Of a stretch of DNA of 64,000 nucleotides, positions 18,904 to 29,981 are shown piece by piece. Source of the DNA: Kordiimonas sp. SCSIO 12610 (GTDB lineage: Bacteria; Pseudomonadota; Alphaproteobacteria; Sphingomonadales; Kordiimonadaceae); assembly GCF_024398015.1 (NCBI RefSeq), contig NZ_CP073747.1, forward strand, positions 1,684,501-1,748,500. The letters are read 5' to 3'. The position numbers and the translations under genes are program-made. The notes beneath the pieces are model-generated. The model saw only the letters and a list, made by a program, of their open reading frames with translations, did not search any database and was not told where the DNA came from. How positions within the stretch are numbered: the first letter of the stretch is position 1; every line of letters starts with the position of its first letter.

Positions 18904-19662
18904 ATGGATTTGGGTCTAAAGGAAAAGCGAGTTCTCATCACTGGGGGGACGCGTGGAATTGGAGCCTCGATTGTCGACACCTTGTTAGATGAAGGCGCTT
19001 CGGTTGCTTACTGCGCCCGAAACTCTGATGAGATCGCGACTACGCTTGCGGTTTATAAAGCGAAAGGCGCTAACGTTTGGGCGAAGGCCTGTGACGTTGG
19101 AAATCCTGCCGAGTATCAAGCATGGCTGGCTGAGGCGGTATCGGCCCTTGGTGGTGCGGACATTTTTATCCCGAATGTGAGCGCTGGTGCGAACGCAGGT
19201 GAAGAAGGGTGGCAAGCCGCCTTTAACGTTGATTTAATGGCAACTGTGCGCGGCTGTGAGGCCATGCTGGGTGAGCTCGTGAAAGGCGTTGATCCCTCAA
19301 TTGTTGTTATTACTAGTATTGCCGGACTTGAAATTATGGGGGAACCTGGTCCCTATAATACCATAAAAGCCGGTTTGATCACATATGCCAGCCAATTGGG
19401 GGATATTGCAGCACAACATGGCATAAGGGTAAATTGTGTATCACCAGGCCCTATTCATGTGGATGATGGATTTTGGGGAAAGGTTCAAAGCGCTCAGCCA
19501 GGGACCTATAATCAAGTTGCAGAACGCCATCCGATGAACCGCCTTGGGACCACAGCAGAAGTTGCGAAGACGGTTGCGTTTCTGGTCAGCCCAGCTGCAT
19601 CATGGATAACGCGTACCAACGTAATTGTAGATGGTGGCTTTTCAAGGCGGATACAGTTCTAA
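18904..19662 (+). CDS. Short-chain dehydrogenase/reductase
   Basis: A 252-residue classical SDR with TGGTRGIG near residue 14 and the catalytic YxxxK as YNTIK after GEPGP. The usual NNAG is replaced by PNVSAG. The C-terminal TNVIVDGGFSRRIQF is family-typical. Start: the ATG at 18904 follows AGGGAAGGG by 8 bases, whereas the in-frame GTG at 18895 overlaps that site. It is the last gene of the patatin-fadD-SDR group. Substrate unknown. Confidence 0.9.
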   Translation: MDLGLKEKRVLITGGTRGIGASIVDTLLDEGASVAYCARNSDEIATTLAVYKAKGANVWAKACDVGNPAEYQAWLAEAVSALGGADIFIPNVSAGANAGEEGWQAAFNVDLMATVRGCEAMLGELVKGVDPSIVVITSIAGLEIMGEPGPYNTIKAGLITYASQLGDIAAQHGIRVNCVSPGPIHVDDGFWGKVQSAQPGTYNQVAERHPMNRLGTTAEVAKTVAFLVSPAASWITRTNVIVDGGFSRRIQF

Positions 19663-19833
19663 AGCCACCCCGTCAGATTAGTTATTAAATTGCCTGTAAA
19701 CCGACGTGTTGATGAGCTTTGATCATTCAGTCAAACCCATGTCTTATCGTTGACAATTATTTAAGATTTTAGAGGTTATAGTTATTATTAGAAATTTCAA
19801 TAATCTAATTTTAATATAGTTGGGGCAAAAGCG

Positions 19834-21576
19834 ATGAAGATAACCAGGTTTATTCCTATAGTCTTTACCGTGTTTTGTACATTTTCGTCCATCATGTCAT
19901 TTTACCTTACGACGGGTGAATGGCTTGGGTATTTACCATTTTTAGGGTCCGCACTTTTTGGGGCCCTGGCCGGTGTTATCGTAAGATTATTGATCGAAAC
20001 CAACGAAATTGTTCCTGCACGAAAACTCAATGAATTATTGGCACTTGTTGCTGATAAAAAACTGACTCAAAGCGATGCTGTTTTAAATGAACTGGCAATC
20101 GATCAAGACCTTCAGGAAGCGGTTCGATCGATCATTGAAAATATGCGTGTAGCCGAAGAAACGGGAAGTGAATTTGACAATGTTCGTGCCAGCCTGAATA
20201 AAGTTATCAGAGAAAAACAAAGCAATGAAACTGTTCTGCGTGACCAAAGGGAGGCGTTTGCGAAGCTTGCATCCGAACTTTCTAAAGCACGTGACGCAGC
20301 CGAGTCAGCAAGTGTAGCCAAGTCAGAATTTCTTGCCACAATGAGCCATGAAATACGCACACCACTGAACGGTGTTATCGGTATGATTGATTTGTTGCTC
20401 GATTCTGACCTCAGTACAGAACAGTTGTCGTATGCTTCTACTTTGAAACAGTCAGCACAATCATTATTGACTGTTATCAATGATATTCTGGATATTTCAA
20501 AGCTGGAAGCAGGCAAGGTTGAATTAGAATCTCAAACACTTAATCTGCTTTCCGTGGTTGAGCGTTCTATTGAGGTTCTTTCATCAAAAGCCAATGAAAA
20601 AGGCCTGAATATATCATGCGATATTGCGGATGATATTCCTGAAGCTATCGTTAGTGATCCAACCCGTATTCGGCAAATTCTATTTAACCTTCTTGGAAAT
20701 GCGATCAAATTTACAGATGTTGGGTCCGTTACAGTAACGGCGAATTTGCTTGGCGATAAATCAGGCGACAATGGTTATATTGAAATTGCGGTGAAGGATA
20801 CTGGGATTGGAATTCCAAGGCCAGCACAAGAGAAATTGTTTTCTAAATTTTCCCAGGCTGATGCATCAACGACTAGAAAGTACGGTGGTACTGGACTTGG
20901 GCTTGCCATATGCAAACAGCTTTCTGAGCTTTTGGGGGGCGGAATTTCTCTTGAAAGCAGCGAAGGTGAGGGGTCTGAATTTAAATTCCACTTCCCATTC
21001 ACGAAAGGCAATATAGAGGACATTGCGCCCGAAGACCTCTTGATTTGTCAGGTCCCCATTGAGCAACAATCGGTTACACGTTCGCTCAATATTCTTGTTG
21101 TTGATGATAATGAGATTAATCTGACAATCCTCAATAATATTCTTTTAAAAGTGGGCCATCAGGTAACGAACGCATCGGACGGTGCTATCGCATGCAGTTT
21201 GGTCGAGCAGCAAGAATTTGATCTGATATTGATGGATATTCAAATGCCAGTACTCGGTGGTGTGGATGCGACCAAATGGATAAGAGCTATGGACGAACCC
21301 TATGCGTCCATACCTATTATTGCCTGTACAGCAGATGCCTTCCCAGAGCAAATAGAGCGCTTCAAGTCTGCTGGAATGCAGGATGTTGTTACAAAACCTA
21401 TCAATCGACAACAGCTTTTGATCACAATGAATTCCGTTTTGGGTGATGTAATACACACGGTGGATACAGATTTGTCGGCGCAAGTGAACGTAAAAACGGC
21501 TTCAAAGCCTGAAGTGCCTAATGAGCCTAAATTAGATGTAGATCCCCTTGATGCCTTGCTTGATGAACTTGGCTGA
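19834..21576 (+). CDS. Membrane hybrid histidine kinase with receiver domain
   Basis: A 580-residue sensor kinase. Two N-terminal transmembrane helices (about 5-24 and 32-54) enclose a very short periplasmic loop. A coiled region leads to the HisKA dimerisation helix with phospho-acceptor His172 in [11 protein letters not shown]; the ATPase domain has N289, the G1 box DTGIGIP at 322-328 and GGTGLGLAI at 351-359. A receiver domain follows at about 419-540 with phospho-acceptor Asp468 in LILMDIQMP. No HPt domain is present, so phosphate probably passes to a separate histidine phosphotransferase. No cognate response regulator lies beside it. With so little periplasmic sequence, the signal is likely in the membrane or the cytoplasm. 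Confidence 0.93.
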
Positions 21577-21690
21577 TATTGCGGATAATTTTATCTCCAC
21601 CGTTGATGTGAAATCCTTGGCAGCCCCCTGATATTATAATAGCATATATCAACCACCTATCGATATTACTAAGCTTGAGCGAGAAATATT

Positions 21691-23457
21691 ATGCGGTTTG
21701 CTATCACTACTTTGATTATCCTTTTATTTTCTTTTGAATATGTATCCGCAAATGATGCTGAAGAAGCATTGACAAAACTTTTTCAAGAAGAGCGGGCGGC
21801 ATATTATAAGGAAAATCCTGGAACTGGCCCGATCGGCGCCGACATGCCCATTGGTCGAAAATTTCAAGGTGTAAGCGAAGCAGACCATCAGCGCCGCGCT
21901 AAATTTGCCGCTAATCTCAGAAACAAACTGTATGCAATTGATAGAAATGCGTTATCTGCCACCTCTCAGTTAAATTACGACATGTTCGATTATCTTCTTA
22001 GTCGGACAATTGTGTTTGCAAAACACCGGACATGGAGGATCCCGTTCTATAGCGATAGTGGATTTCATACCGCTCCAACTAGAATATGGCAGAGCATCAG
22101 ATTTAACAGCAAAGACGATTATTACGCATACATTGATCGTTTGAATGACCTTCCGCGTTATTTCGACGAGCATATTGAAAATATGCGCGCTGGTGTTCGT
22201 GATGATTTCACAATGCCGAAAGTTGTTTTAGATGGCTTGATGCCAACATTCGGCGCTCATATCGTGTCAAAGCCCGAAGATAGTGTTTTCTTCGGGGCTT
22301 TTCGTGAATTCAACAGCGATATTCCTGAGGGAGATCAAAATGCAATTCTGACAGCTGCGAAAGCAGCGATTTTGAACAGTGTTGTGCCTGCGTATCAGAA
22401 ATTAAATGATTTTATGCAGAATGAATATTATCCCGCTGCACGCACTGATCTCGCTGCTTCAAACACGCCGAACGGCAAAGCCTATTATGAAGCTATGGTG
22501 AAATTCTATACCACCTTGGATATCTCGCCGGATGAAGTTCATGAACTGGGTCTAAAAGAAGTTGCGCGTATTCGCAGTGAAATGGAAGATGTGATCAAAG
22601 ACGCTAAGTTTGAAGGCAGCTTTAACGAATTTACCAACTTTCTTCGGTCAGACCCTCAGTTTTATGCAAAAACCGAGGAAGAGTTGCTTATGAATGCAAC
22701 TTTTATCGCCAAGGAAATTGATGGTAAAATGCCAGCCTTCTTTGGGAAATTACCAAGGCAACCGTATGGAGTAGAAGCTGTTCCTGCCTCGCTTGCACCG
22801 AATTATACAACGGGTCGGTATTCGGGTTCTCCTTTGAATGCACCAAGAGGGGGGTATTACTGGGTTAATACATATGCTTTGCATAATCGGCCTCTATATA
22901 ATCTGAGGGCTTTGACACTTCATGAAGCTGTCCCTGGACACCATCATCAAAGTGCGCTTTCAAAGGAGCTGGAAAATGTTCCTGAATTTCGGTTAGGGCT
23001 TTATCCGCATGCTTTTGGTGAGGGTTGGGGGCTTTATAGCGAAAAACTTGGTATCGAAATGGGTATCTACAAAACGCCTTATGATCATTTTGGTCGGCTG
23101 AGTTATGAAATGTGGCGCGCCTGCAGGTTGGTTATTGATACAGGTATTCATTACAAGGGCTGGAGCCGCGATCAGGCGATAAAACTGTTGGAAGAAAATT
23201 CCGCACTTTCAAAGTTGAATATCAGAACAGAGGTTGACCGATATATCTCATGGCCAGGCCAAGCCCTTGCTTATAAAATGGGTGAGCTAAAAATACTTGA
23301 ATTACGTAAAAGGGCCAAGGACGCTTTAGAAAATGCATTTGATATTCGAGAATTTCACGATCAGGTTTTGTCTGCGGGTGGTGTTCCACTGAACGTTTTA
23401 GAGCGAAGAATTGTTGAATGGATTGAGCGGAAGGTATCAGATTCCGGGCAAGACTGA
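21691..23457 (+). CDS. DUF885 family metallopeptidase-like protein, exported
   Basis: A 588-residue protein beginning with a signal peptide (hydrophobic core about 4-15, likely cleavage after VSA near residue 20). The C-terminal half contains LHEAVPGHHHQ followed 30 residues later by HAFGEGWGLYSE, the two-part zinc-binding pattern of the DUF885 family, a relative of gluzincin peptidases. Function in the family is poorly known; a periplasmic peptidase is likely. Its TGA stop overlaps the ATG of the first PAS_5 gene by one base (TGATG), so the two are translationally coupled. Confidence 0.88.
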   Translation: MRFAITTLIILLFSFEYVSANDAEEALTKLFQEERAAYYKENPGTGPIGADMPIGRKFQGVSEADHQRRAKFAANLRNKLYAIDRNALSATSQLNYDMFDYLLSRTIVFAKHRTWRIPFYSDSGFHTAPTRIWQSIRFNSKDDYYAYIDRLNDLPRYFDEHIENMRAGVRDDFTMPKVVLDGLMPTFGAHIVSKPEDSVFFGAFREFNSDIPEGDQNAILTAAKAAILNSVVPAYQKLNDFMQNEYYPAARTDLAASNTPNGKAYYEAMVKFYTTLDISPDEVHELGLKEVARIRSEMEDVIKDAKFEGSFNEFTNFLRSDPQFYAKTEEELLMNATFIAKEIDGKMPAFFGKLPRQPYGVEAVPASLAPNYTTGRYSGSPLNAPRGGYYWVNTYALHNRPLYNLRALTLHEAVPGHHHQSALSKELENVPEFRLGLYPHAFGEGWGLYSEKLGIEMGIYKTPYDHFGRLSYEMWRACRLVIDTGIHYKGWSRDQAIKLLEENSALSKLNIRTEVDRYISWPGQALAYKMGELKILELRKRAKDALENAFDIREFHDQVLSAGGVPLNVLERRIVEWIERKVSDSGQD

Positions 23458-23951
23458 TGAGCATTGATCATTTGGAAACCATAAAGAAAAATGCCCTGCC
23501 AGGGAAGGTGTTCGTCGGTGGCGACTGTGTGCCTAATTTATGGAGTGATGCTAAGTATTTATATGATCTTTGGAACAAAAAGAAGGCGAAAAATAAGGCG
23601 CCGCAGCGGAAGGATTTTACACCGCAAGAAATGAAACAGTGTCTGGCTTTAATTGCACTGCACGATATTTCCTATGACCCCCTGCGCAGCAAGGTCCGCC
23701 TAATTGGAACGGGAGTTGTCGAAGCCACGGGAATGGAAGCGACCGGTTGGTATGTTGATGAAGTTCAAGGGACAGAGTTTTTATTACAACGGGCCAAATG
23801 GATTGTAGAAAATTGTTGCCCTATGCTGTGCGTTGATTTGCCTCTTATATGGTCACATCTTGATTATAAGCACTATGATGTTTTGGCGCTCCCTTTGATA
23901 GATGAGGCCGATAGAGTTGCAATGATTATGTATTTAGCAAAATATTATTAA
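23457..23951 (+). CDS. PAS_5-domain protein, copy 1
   Basis: A 164-residue protein made almost entirely of one PAS_5-type domain, a family common in alphaproteobacteria. Features are the YLYDLWNKKK start helix, the KVRLIGTGVVEATGMEATGWYVDE core around residues 79-102, and a C-terminal beta strand pair DVLALPLID...IMYL. No kinase, cyclase or DNA-binding output domain is attached. It overlaps the DUF885 stop codon by one base and is the first of three paralogues. PAS domains usually bind ligands or partner proteins; the role here is unknown. Confidence 0.87.
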   Translation: MSIDHLETIKKNALPGKVFVGGDCVPNLWSDAKYLYDLWNKKKAKNKAPQRKDFTPQEMKQCLALIALHDISYDPLRSKVRLIGTGVVEATGMEATGWYVDEVQGTEFLLQRAKWIVENCCPMLCVDLPLIWSHLDYKHYDVLALPLIDEADRVAMIMYLAKYY

Positions 23952-24006
23952 TTTGTATCTGCTATCAATGTTTGAAATGGGGTCGAGAAGAAAGTTGAAT
24001 TGAATT

Positions 24007-24501
24007 ATGAGCACCAAGTCTTTTGATGTGCTTGAAGATGTAAACAAGCCTGCTCAACTCTATAACCTGCCAGAGTTGCCTGACCATCTATGGCCTGATG
24101 CCATCGAGCTCTATGAATTATGGCATAGTAAAAAAAATAATCGAGCCGCCTGTAGTCGTCAGGATTTAACGCCGCGTGATATGATAAAGCAACTACCGCT
24201 TATCTCGCTTCATGATATTGAGCGAGATCCGTTCAGGTTGAAGGTACGCCTAATGGGGACGCAATTCGCGGCTGCTATTGGTATGGACGCCACGGATAAA
24301 TATGTCGATGAGTTGGATAAGACGCAAGATGTTATACACAGAGCACAATGGGTTGCTGAGAATTGCGAACCAATTTTATGTATAGGCCTTGAGCTTGTAT
24401 GGTCACCATTTGATTACAAAAAATATGATAGTCTTGTGCTGCCCTTGATCAACGACGAGCAATCGGTTGATATGATCTTGTATTTGAATAGATTTTATTG
24501 A
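24007..24501 (+). CDS. PAS_5-domain protein, copy 2
   Basis: A 164-residue paralogue of the preceding gene. It keeps the same segments: LYELWHSKK, CSRQDLTPRDM, LHDIERDPFRLKVRLMGTQF, GMDATDKYVDEL, and the final SLVLPLIN...ILYLNRFY. By eye the copies share somewhat under half of their residues, so the duplication is old. A GAGAAGAAAG site precedes the start. It contains only the sensory-type domain. Confidence 0.87.
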   Translation: MSTKSFDVLEDVNKPAQLYNLPELPDHLWPDAIELYELWHSKKNNRAACSRQDLTPRDMIKQLPLISLHDIERDPFRLKVRLMGTQFAAAIGMDATDKYVDELDKTQDVIHRAQWVAENCEPILCIGLELVWSPFDYKKYDSLVLPLINDEQSVDMILYLNRFY

Positions 24502-24535
24502 TAAAAACCCATATATTGTCGGCATGGGGGCTGAA

Positions 24536-25042
24536 ATGGGTAATTTATCAAACTTGAAAAGTTTAGATCGCTTGCGCGCGGAACATCCTGATTGTTCGCT
24601 CTATGTTGGCGATGATGTTAAAGATCATGCATGGCCACTTGCGCTTGACCTTTATAACAATTGGGATAGCCATAAAAAGGGTAGACCTGCCTGCTCGAGG
24701 CAGGATCTTTCTGTCATTAGCATGAAACAACAACTGCCGTTAATTGTTTTACACGATGTTATTGGGCCGAATAAACGCTTGAAGGTACGTGTGATAGGCA
24801 CAGAGTTTGTCGATGCAATCGGTTTTGATACAACAGGGCAGTATGTTGATGAAGTTCCAAATGCTGAACGGGTTGTTGACCGCTGTAATTGGTCAATACA
24901 CCATTGCCTGCCATTTCTTAGTATTGGTGTGAAGCTCACATTTTCGCATTATGATTATAAGGTTTACGATTCCATTCTTTTACCGTTGATCGATGACGAA
25001 GGTGAAGTCAACATGCTTTTAACCTATTCTCACTTTCATTAA
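24536..25042 (+). CDS. PAS_5-domain protein, copy 3
   Basis: A 168-residue third paralogue with LYNNWDSHKK, CSRQDLSVISM, LHDVIGPNKRLKVRVIGTEF, GFDTTGQYVDEV and SILLPLIDD. I prefer the ATG at 24536, which has GGGGG five bases upstream; an ATG at 24524 in the same frame would add four residues but has no ribosome-binding site. It ends the tandem array. CysK begins 79 bases later and may have its own promoter. Confidence 0.86.
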   Translation: MGNLSNLKSLDRLRAEHPDCSLYVGDDVKDHAWPLALDLYNNWDSHKKGRPACSRQDLSVISMKQQLPLIVLHDVIGPNKRLKVRVIGTEFVDAIGFDTTGQYVDEVPNAERVVDRCNWSIHHCLPFLSIGVKLTFSHYDYKVYDSILLPLIDDEGEVNMLLTYSHFH

Positions 25043-25121
25043 AACGATCCCTCACAAATAAGTGGCTTGCGAAATTATTCATGTTAAGTCTATAGAACTG
25101 TCCGGTTTTAGGAGGTTCTTT

Positions 25122-26120
25122 ATGACTGATTACGCAGGCACTTTAAGTGCAATTGGCAATACCCCGCTCATTAAGTTGAAATATGCATCTGAATTAACAG
25201 GATGTACCATTCTTGGTAAGGCCGAGTATGCGAACCCCGGTGGGTCTGTTAAGGATCGCCCTGCGCTTGGTATTATCGAAGACGCAGAGAAAAAAGGTCT
25301 TTTGGAACCGGGTGGTTTGGTTGTGGAAGGTACTGCTGGAAATACCGGTATCGGCCTTACTGTGGTTGCGAATGCAAAAGGGTATAAAACGCTTATTGTA
25401 ATGCCTGAAACACAAAGTCAGGAAAAAATAGATACGCTTCGTATTTTGGGCGCGGAACTGAAATTAGTACCGGCAGCTCCTTTTTCAAATCCAAATAACT
25501 TCCAGCATGTTGCGCGCCGACTTGCAGAAGAATTGTCATCGACCGCCGAGCACGGAGCCATTTGGGCAGGGCAATTTGAAAATGTTGCCAATCGTGAATC
25601 GCACATTCGAACAACTGCGCGCGAATTGTGGGACGAAACAAACGGAACTCTTGATGGCTTTATTTGTGCTGTGGGTACTGGAGGGACTTTGGCAGGCACA
25701 GGGATTGGCCTAAAGGAGTTTAACAAAGATATCGTTATCGGTATTGCCGACCCTATGGGGGCTTCGCTCTATAATTATTATACAAACGGTGAATTAAAGG
25801 CTGAAGGTAGTTCTATTGCCGAAGGGATTGGTCAGTCACGGATTACACCAAACCTTGAAGGGGCTCCTGTTGATGAAGCCTTCCAGATCACTGATGAGGA
25901 AGCTCTTCCACTTGCATTCGAGCTTCTTCAAAAGGAAGGGTTGTGTGTTGGTGCATCCACCGGTGTTAACCTGGCTGGTGCAATTCGCCTCGCTAAAAAA
26001 ATGGGGCCTGGGCATACGATTGCAACAATCATTTGCGACAGTGGCCTACGGTATCAGTCGCGCTTGTTTAACCCTGAATTCTTAAAAGAAAAAGGCTTGC
26101 CCGTACCTGATTGGTTATAG
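25122..26120 (+). CDS. cysK: Cysteine synthase A (O-acetylserine sulfhydrylase)
   Basis: A 332-residue PLP enzyme making cysteine from O-acetylserine and sulfide. The PLP lysine is Lys44 in GGSVKDR; the substrate loop is EGTAGNTGIG and the phosphate-binding glycine loop is GTGGTLAGTG. The start is fixed by a strong AGGAGG site at 25110-25115 before ATG 25122; a frame extension from a GTG at 25062 lacks both a ribosome-binding site and homology. It is slightly longer than classical CysK and could also be a cystathionine-beta-synthase-like relative, but no CBS or other extra domain is present. Confidence 0.9.
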   Translation: MTDYAGTLSAIGNTPLIKLKYASELTGCTILGKAEYANPGGSVKDRPALGIIEDAEKKGLLEPGGLVVEGTAGNTGIGLTVVANAKGYKTLIVMPETQSQEKIDTLRILGAELKLVPAAPFSNPNNFQHVARRLAEELSSTAEHGAIWAGQFENVANRESHIRTTARELWDETNGTLDGFICAVGTGGTLAGTGIGLKEFNKDIVIGIADPMGASLYNYYTNGELKAEGSSIAEGIGQSRITPNLEGAPVDEAFQITDEEALPLAFELLQKEGLCVGASTGVNLAGAIRLAKKMGPGHTIATIICDSGLRYQSRLFNPEFLKEKGLPVPDWL

Positions 26121-28934: not shown

Positions 28935-29981
28935 GTGGAAGCTTCTGTTTCAAACATAAATGAAGATAAAGGGTATATTTTTTTCTGGTGTAAAAGCCGC
29001 GAACTATACAGAAAAATAAATACCCGTTTCGATGAAAGCACCCGTGTTCATAGTGAAAACTTTTTTGCGTCCGTTCGCTGCTACGCAGTTGAGGATCATG
29101 AAACTAAAATCACGCAGTTGAGTGAAATCCTGAGCGAAGAAGAACAGCAAAAGATAAAAATTCTTTTTTCCTATTCACTGACCCCGTCCATGAATGAATT
29201 TGGCTTCATTCGTACCATCGAACAATTTAATATGGAAGCATCAGCCCGTTGGTTGTGTGAGCTATTGGTTGATCGTAGGTATAAGCCATTGATGCAGCCT
29301 ATTGTGAATGCACATGATACACAGGACGTGATGGGCTATGAATTCCTATTCAGGGGGTTATATCCTGATGGGCGGGTGATATCAGCACCCTATATGTTCG
29401 GCACGGCGGAAAAGTTGGGAATGCTTTACCCGCTAGATCTGGCTGCAGGCGAAGTTGCAGCAATATATGCAAAGAAGTTTGATATCAAAGAACGTGTGTT
29501 CATTAACGTTTTGCCAGAGTCCATCAAGTCGGAAGAGGCCTTTACGGCTTGGCTATCGACGGTTACCAAAAATTTCCAATATGAAAAAAATCAATTGGTT
29601 TTTGAATTGGTTGAAAGCCAGGAAATTCCTGATGTGGATACTATGCAAAAGGTAGTCGAGTTGTTGCACGATCATGGTGTTCAGTTTGCGCTCGATGATT
29701 TTGGAACAGGTTTCAATAACCTTGTTACCCTCACACAAGTAAGGCCCGATTACGTAAAAATTGATAAGTCGCTTACTGATAATATCATGCGCGATCCGTT
29801 CAAATGGAACTTGCTCGCCAATATTGTCGATGCGGCGAAGCAGGTTGGGACAAAGGTCATAGCGGAAGGCGTGGAAGACGAAGAAACCTACGCTATCCTA
29901 AAGGACGTAGACGTGGATTACATGCAGGGATATTATTTCGGGTATCCTAGCGAAAGACCAATTGGGTATAACGAAGATTAG
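28935..29981 (+). CDS. EAL domain protein (putative c-di-GMP phosphodiesterase)
   Basis: A 348-residue protein starting at GTG with CGAGGG seven bases upstream. Residues 1-110 are of no recognised family. The EAL domain (about 115-345) has EFLFR with Glu136 instead of EALLR, then INVLP, FELVES, the ALDDFGTG metal motif, YVKIDK, AEGVE and MQGYYFG. All glutamate, aspartate, lysine and glutamine positions needed for metal binding and hydrolysis seem retained, so the enzyme may be active despite the altered signature. No GGDEF domain. It likely lowers c-di-GMP, which fits a motile cell. It converges with the MarR gene, 9 bases between. Confidence 0.88.
   Translation: MEASVSNINEDKGYIFFWCKSRELYRKINTRFDESTRVHSENFFASVRCYAVEDHETKITQLSEILSEEEQQKIKILFSYSLTPSMNEFGFIRTIEQFNMEASARWLCELLVDRRYKPLMQPIVNAHDTQDVMGYEFLFRGLYPDGRVISAPYMFGTAEKLGMLYPLDLAAGEVAAIYAKKFDIKERVFINVLPESIKSEEAFTAWLSTVTKNFQYEKNQLVFELVESQEIPDVDTMQKVVELLHDHGVQFALDDFGTGFNNLVTLTQVRPDYVKIDKSLTDNIMRDPFKWNLLANIVDAAKQVGTKVIAEGVEDEETYAILKDVDVDYMQGYYFGYPSERPIGYNED

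What the first reader, a model, noticed from the sequence alone, without database searches (positions are those of the whole stretch)
21691..25042. Three tandem output-less PAS_5 proteins coupled to a DUF885 peptidase
Three diverged paralogues consisting of a single PAS_5 domain follow one another; the first overlaps the stop codon of an exported DUF885 protein by one base. A hybrid histidine kinase gene lies just upstream. PAS-only proteins must act through partners, and an old triplication kept intact suggests different ligands or partners. This is the part of the window least explained by known pathways.
Basis: partly seen in the sequence, partly recalled or inferred. Interest (0 to 1): 0.5.

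Follow-up and report, generated by a model that had tools for sequence, protein, structure and literature searches.

The report
Tandem PAS genes behind a peptidase
Three small sensor-fold proteins lie in a row behind a peptidase gene in a marine bacterium; they look like a local expansion of an abundant and partly studied protein family, tied to the peptidase but not clearly to the nearby kinase.

Summary
In detail: DUF885 (21691-23457), PASa (23457-23951), PASb (24007-24501) and PASc (24524-25042) are intact, co-directional genes; PASa starts inside the DUF885 stop codon; PASb is confidently predicted as a PAS fold. The genome is Kordiimonadaceae. In 29 family genomes, DUF885 lies at this site, before cysK, in 18; PAS genes of this clade follow it in 4 of the 18 (three here, two in the sister genome, one each in Kordiimonas marina and G025). 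In three of these four the DUF885-PAS junction overlaps or nearly touches, so the peptidase link is real but patchy. The kinase link is not specific: in both single-PAS genomes a divergent asparaginase-family gene separates kinase from DUF885, and in 10 genomes the kinase precedes cysK with neither DUF885 nor PAS. PAS-only proteins are ordinary here (median 15 PAS_5 matches per family genome, tandem arrays of up to six). Caulobacter MopJ, a single PAS_5 protein that binds the DivJ kinase, is the working precedent, but these proteins miss NCBI's MopJ cut-off by far. Best reading: MopJ-like cytoplasmic adaptors made together with the peptidase; partners and ligands unknown. A new member of a known kind, of modest interest.

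The parts
19834..21576 (+). Hybrid histidine kinase (HisKA, HATPase_c, receiver); no sensor domain found by Pfam
21691..23457 (+). DUF885 protein, probably exported (signal peptide judged by eye); H-E-A-V-P-G-H-H and G-E-G-W-G motifs read in the translation
   Evidence: PDB 3o0y, E 4.1e-78
23457..23951 (+). PASa, single PAS_5 domain, 164 aa; start overlaps the DUF885 stop by one base
24007..24501 (+). PASb, single PAS_5 domain, 164 aa; 66% identical to its sister-genome orthologue; predicted PAS fold, mean pLDDT 92.6
24524..25042 (+). PASc, diverged PAS_5 paralogue, 172 aa (below the Pfam cut-off); 58% identical to its sister-genome orthologue; PAS-like order of elements, mean pLDDT 80.6
25122..26120 (+). 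Cysteine synthase gene (ATG start judged by eye), right border of the insert site

Best explanation
The three genes are a lineage-specific tandem expansion of one PAS_5 gene that sits directly behind, and is probably translated together with, a periplasmic DUF885 peptidase gene. The DUF885(+PAS) block is itself an optional insert before cysK in Kordiimonadaceae. The products are cytoplasmic single-domain PAS proteins that work like Caulobacter MopJ: each binds a partner, most likely the HisKA region of a histidine kinase, and tunes its activity or its place in the cell in response to a small ligand or simply to its own abundance, which here follows expression of the peptidase. Shown: genes, gene order, common descent, purifying selection on b and c, PAS fold by prediction. 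Inferred from the junctions: joint transcription and translational coupling. Inferred by analogy only: kinase-adaptor action. Unknown: which partner, which ligand.
For: Gene order in 29 family genomes: PAS genes of this clade only behind DUF885, in 4 of 18 genomes with DUF885 at the site and 0 of 11 without. Junctions: 1-base overlap here, 11-base overlap in G025, 2-nt gap in K. marina. One clade of seven, support 100/99, among 66 PAS_5 rows. Purifying selection on b and c. Predicted PAS fold. The only NCBIfam model matched is MopJ, at 39-47 bits (cut-off 200); MopJ is a single PAS_5 protein pulled down with the DivJ kinase, whose residues 329-392 (HisKA region) are needed to place it (passages of PMC4432633).
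Against: No partner or ligand was tested. The sister genome has about 200 nt between DUF885 and its first PAS gene, so tight coupling is not universal. 14 of 18 family genomes have DUF885 at the site without PAS. PASc is below the Pfam cut-off. The genome has no protein over the MopJ cut-off (0 of 17 matches), so the analogy crosses a large sequence distance. Promoter-like matches are somewhat more than in shuffles (20 found, 13.7 +/- 3.3, over 19600-25300) and some lie inside the block, so internal promoters are not excluded; no terminator-like site was listed in the PASc-cysK gap, so the end of the operon is not shown.
Confidence: 0.5

Rival explanations
1. The PAS proteins are trans-acting sensors for the neighbouring hybrid kinase, which lacks a recognised sensor domain of its own.
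For: No Pfam sensor domain in the kinase; it lies directly upstream of DUF885-PAS here and in the sister genome; MopJ binds a HisKA-type kinase.
Against: The kinase precedes cysK without DUF885 or PAS in 10 of 29 family genomes; in both single-PAS genomes a divergent Asparaginase_2 gene separates it from DUF885-PAS; most family genomes with the kinase have no PAS gene of this clade.
Confidence: 0.15
2. The PAS genes are linked to DUF885 by function: they sense peptide or amino-acid status that the peptidase affects and pass it to other regulators of peptide use.
For: The clade's block lies directly behind DUF885 in all four genomes that have it; the surroundings hold amino-acid genes (cysK, an Lrp-type regulator, alanine dehydrogenase, asparaginase-family genes; some names from the sequence by eye).
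Against: 14 of 18 family genomes have DUF885 at this site without PAS; among the 80 named DUF885 loci (the best 80 of 296), outside this gene order none has a PAS_5 gene next to DUF885. DUF885 is probably exported and the PAS proteins show no signal peptide by eye, so contact is unlikely.
Confidence: 0.2
3. The array is a near-neutral by-product of an expanding gene family that landed in a variable slot.
For: PAS_5 is abundant (29 of 29 family genomes, median 15 matches) and found in tandem elsewhere; the same slot holds other genes in two genomes (receiver-EAL gene in G027, an opposite-strand gene in G008); distribution is patchy.
Against: Protein sequence of b and c is held while synonymous sites are at or near saturation; all three frames are intact.
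Confidence: 0.15

Closest known systems
MopJ (CCNA_00999) of Caulobacter crescentus, NCBIfam NF051868
   Same: About 165 aa, one PAS_5 domain, no output domain; the only NCBIfam model matched by the three
   Different: 39-47 bits against a cut-off of 200. MopJ expression depends on GcrA and rises with ppGpp (passages of PMC4432633); here a tandem array behind a peptidase gene
Other tandem single-PAS_5 arrays in the family and order (L185, L186, L187, L188)
   Same: Two to six co-directional PAS_5 genes (Pfam checked for both of L185 and one each of L187 and L188)
   Different: Rows of these arrays on the tree fall outside the clade of this site; no DUF885 was noticed beside them, though it was not searched for
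PAS domain of kinase ThkA (3a0s) and photoactive yellow protein (fold only)
   Same: ThkA PAS Z 10.1, 1.9 A over 90 residues; photoactive yellow protein (1gsv) Z 9.8, 3.0 A over 114 residues
   Different: 13% and 7% identity; a shared fold says nothing on ligand

Membership tests
PAS_5 (PF07310) | Score over the Pfam cut-off of 22 bits, PASa and PASb | tested here: met
   28.8 and 27.5 bits
PAS_5 (PF07310) | Score over the Pfam cut-off of 22 bits, PASc | tested here: not met
   15.6 bits; placed with a and b by alignment and tree only
PAS fold | Five-stranded sheet with helices between strands 2 and 3 | tested here: met
   Predicted model of PASb, mean pLDDT 92.6, order of elements and PDB matches; PASc model weaker, 80.6; PASa not modelled
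MopJ equivalog (NF051868) | Score over 200 bits | tested here: not met
   46.3, 47.1, 39.0 bits; none of 17 matches in the genome over the cut-off
MopJ equivalog (NF051868) | Single PAS_5 domain, about 165 residues, no output domain | tested here: met
   164, 164, 172 aa; no other Pfam domain over its cut-off
MopJ equivalog (NF051868) | Binds DivJ, polar localisation, supports CtrA | not testable with these tools
   Needs experiments
DUF885 (PF05960) | Score over 32.4 bits along the domain | tested here: met
   543.5 bits, profile 15-532 of 532

The most novel reading that the evidence does not exclude
DUF885 and its PAS_5 companions form a small peptide-status module in which paralogous PAS proteins, made in step with a periplasmic peptidase, act as interchangeable soluble input units for sensor-less hybrid kinases.
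Probability: 0.08. Interest if true: 0.5.

Novelty: new member of a known kind. Interest (0 to 1): 0.2.

Why it matters
It shows that the MopJ-type single PAS_5 protein has many relatives in Kordiimonadaceae, a median of 15 matches per genome, with repeated tandem arrays. How PAS proteins without an output domain choose partners and ligands is an open question that close paralogues such as PASa, b and c would make testable side by side. The locus itself is otherwise ordinary.

Tried and rejected
Considered and rejected: (1) the three as MopJ orthologues: cut-off missed by far. (2) A conserved kinase-peptidase-PAS system: gene order varies. (3) Recent lateral arrival of the PAS genes: their GC is near that of the host stretch in each genome (0.42-0.43 vs 0.46 here; 0.57 vs 0.60 in K. 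marina; 0.52 vs 0.52 in G025; 0.39 and 0.41 vs 0.43 in the sister). This does not exclude old transfer. (4) Decayed PAS genes in the short DUF885-cysK spacers: none in the 11 genomes searched; outside the PAS-bearing loci the best match had E 5 (G028 was not in that search). (5) A solved relative by sequence: the PDB search with alignment A2 gave three short matches to proteins of other kinds (best E 0.0015, a transposase), judged chance.

Led nowhere: paper searches for 'PAS_5' (63 papers, 20 listed, one title clearly on this domain), 'DUF885' (13 papers, 12 listed, none with the term in title or abstract), 'PAS domain' with 'Kordiimonas' (0 papers), MopJ (7 and 8 papers). Of all these only passages of PMC4432633 were read; the rest were seen as listings. 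Gain or loss of the PAS genes was not settled: on the DUF885 tree the four genomes need three changes (well-supported branches force two); G017 pairs with PAS-less G021 and G025 with PAS-less G022. One origin at the site with several losses fits the single PAS clade; transfer is not excluded.

Limits of the counts: the PAS_5 tree used 66 of the 83 rows; six named rows (copies, fragments, weak matches) and rows under 55 bits were dropped, so some of the genome's own weaker PAS_5 proteins are not on it, and two of its rows are flagged as long. The order search scored at most nine candidates per genome and drew its 396 genomes from a larger group. One search gave counts for all 59 genomes but only part of the matches as rows. 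One search showed neighbours only at 45% identity or more (PAS_5 at E 1e-6 or better), within flanks of up to 6 kb.

Full report
What is there. The window lies in a 3.50 Mb single-contig genome. The genes of the finding are intact at the stated places. DUF885 is a full-length member of PF05960 with solved relatives (3o0y, 3iuk, 3u24). The three small proteins carry no domain other than PAS_5 over its cut-off; the third scores 15.6 bits for PAS_5, below the cut-off of 22, but aligns with the other two along its length.

Fold. AlphaFold2 with six sequences gives PASb a mean pLDDT of 92.6 with the usual PAS order of helices and strands, and PASc 80.6. Foldseek and VIA-align place PASb among PAS domains: ThkA PAS, Z 10.1, 1.9 A over 90 residues; photoactive yellow protein, Z 9.8, 3.0 A over 114 residues. 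This shows a shared fold, not a shared ligand.

How common such proteins are. PF07310 matches occur in all 29 family genomes held, 1 to 28 per genome, median 15 (counted from the table), and in 24 of the other 30 genomes of that call, 0 to 11 each. In the window's genome the union is 19 places, five of them in tandem (the three here and a pair near 961-962 kb). Elsewhere I saw arrays of three (L186), six (L187) and five (L188) co-directional PAS_5 genes. A tandem set of single PAS_5 genes is therefore not unusual in this group.

Gene order. The site was placed in 28 of the 29 family genomes. In 18 of them DUF885 lies before cysK: G000, G001, G002, G003, G004, G005, G008, G009, G010, G011, G014, G017, G021, G022, G024, G025, G027, G028 (in G028 the gene is split over two contigs). 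In 10 the kinase is followed by cysK with neither DUF885 nor PAS: G006, G012, G013, G015, G016, G018, G019, G020, G023, G026. In G007 cysK and DUF885 lie apart. PAS genes of the window's kind follow DUF885 in 4 of the 18: three here, two in G001 (orthologues of b and c, 66% and 58% identical), one in G017 (Kordiimonas marina by its contig) and one in G025. With the seven-row profile these seven score above 240 bits; the next best PAS_5 protein in the 396 order genomes searched scores 136.6. In 12 of the other 14 genomes the slot holds only a spacer of 93 to 246 nt; in G027 it holds a receiver-EAL gene on the same strand and in G008 an unrelated gene on the other strand. Among the 80 named DUF885 loci kept (of 296), eight show this gene order, all on contigs of family genomes; the rest show none of the tested neighbours, and one of them (L084, itself from Kordiimonadaceae) has a PAS_5 gene about 4 kb away with a weak score of 44 bits.

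Link to the peptidase. Here the PASa start overlaps the DUF885 stop by one base; in G025 the overlap is 11 bases; in K. marina the likely GTG start is 2 nt behind the stop; in G001 about 200 nt separate DUF885 from its first PAS gene. Tight junctions in three genomes speak for joint translation. This is an inference from sequence.

Link to the kinase. The kinase has HisKA, HATPase_c and receiver domains and no sensor domain known to Pfam. It precedes DUF885 on the same strand, with no Asparaginase_2 gene between, in 7 of the 18 genomes (G000, G001, G002, G004, G024, G027, G028). In 6 (G009, G011, G017, G021, G022, G025) a divergent Asparaginase_2 gene lies between the two; these include both genomes with a single PAS gene. 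In G005 and G010 no kinase was found before DUF885; in G003, G008 and G014 the stretch I held did not reach far enough. Together with the 10 genomes with kinase and cysK alone, this argues against a dedicated kinase-PAS pair.

History. On a tree of 66 PAS_5 proteins the seven proteins of this site form one clade (100/99); c pairs with c of G001 (100/100), b with b of G001 (95/58, weaker), K. marina with G025 (99/93), and PASa branches beside the other six (95/92). So b and c split before the two genomes of the genus did. On the DUF885 tree the four PAS-bearing genomes are not one clade; three changes are needed, of which well-supported branches force two. Between this genome and G001, b and c show pN 0.22 and 0.28 with pS 0.90 and 0.74, comparable to DUF885 (0.19 and 0.78). 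The genes are old, b and c are held by selection, and most relatives lack them.

Known counterpart. The nearest described protein I found is MopJ of Caulobacter: a single PAS_5 protein of 165 residues, recovered with the DivJ kinase by co-immunoprecipitation and tandem-affinity purification, placed through DivJ residues 329-392, and supporting CtrA accumulation (passages of PMC4432633). The three proteins match the MopJ model at 39-47 bits against a cut-off of 200, and no protein of this genome passes it. They may work like MopJ; they are not members of that equivalog.

Verdict. The peptidase link is real but limited to a few genomes. The kinase link is not supported as specific. The set is a new member of a known kind.

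Noticed in passing
L222:3983-5239: In G027 the slot between DUF885 and cysK holds a receiver-EAL gene about 40 nt behind DUF885, where other genomes have PAS_5 genes or only a spacer.
   Followed up: partly
L189:5821-6876, L221:5285-6316, L078:4815-5783: A divergent Asparaginase_2 gene lies next to DUF885 in 10 of 18 family genomes with DUF885 at this site; not seen there in the window's genus.
   Followed up: partly
L196-L198, L203, L205-L207, L209, L214, L219; window 19834-21576: A hybrid kinase gene directly before cysteine synthase in 10 family genomes without DUF885; the reason for this neighbourhood is not known to me.
   Followed up: no
L187:5090-9254 and L188:4743-8340: Tandem arrays of six and five single PAS_5 genes in G021 and G071.
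   Followed up: partly
L079:6001-7722: The record Candidatus Uabimicrobium amorphum carries a DUF885 gene 63% identical to this one, as close as within the family, although it belongs to another phylum (recalled, not looked up); none of the other tested neighbours is near it.
   Followed up: no
L221:2619-3317: Opposite-strand gene in the slot of G008 whose C-terminus looks, by eye, like a PEP-CTERM sorting signal; no Pfam match.
   Followed up: no
window 28935-29981: EAL-domain protein downstream, behind a gene that reads like an L-asparaginase by eye.
   Followed up: no
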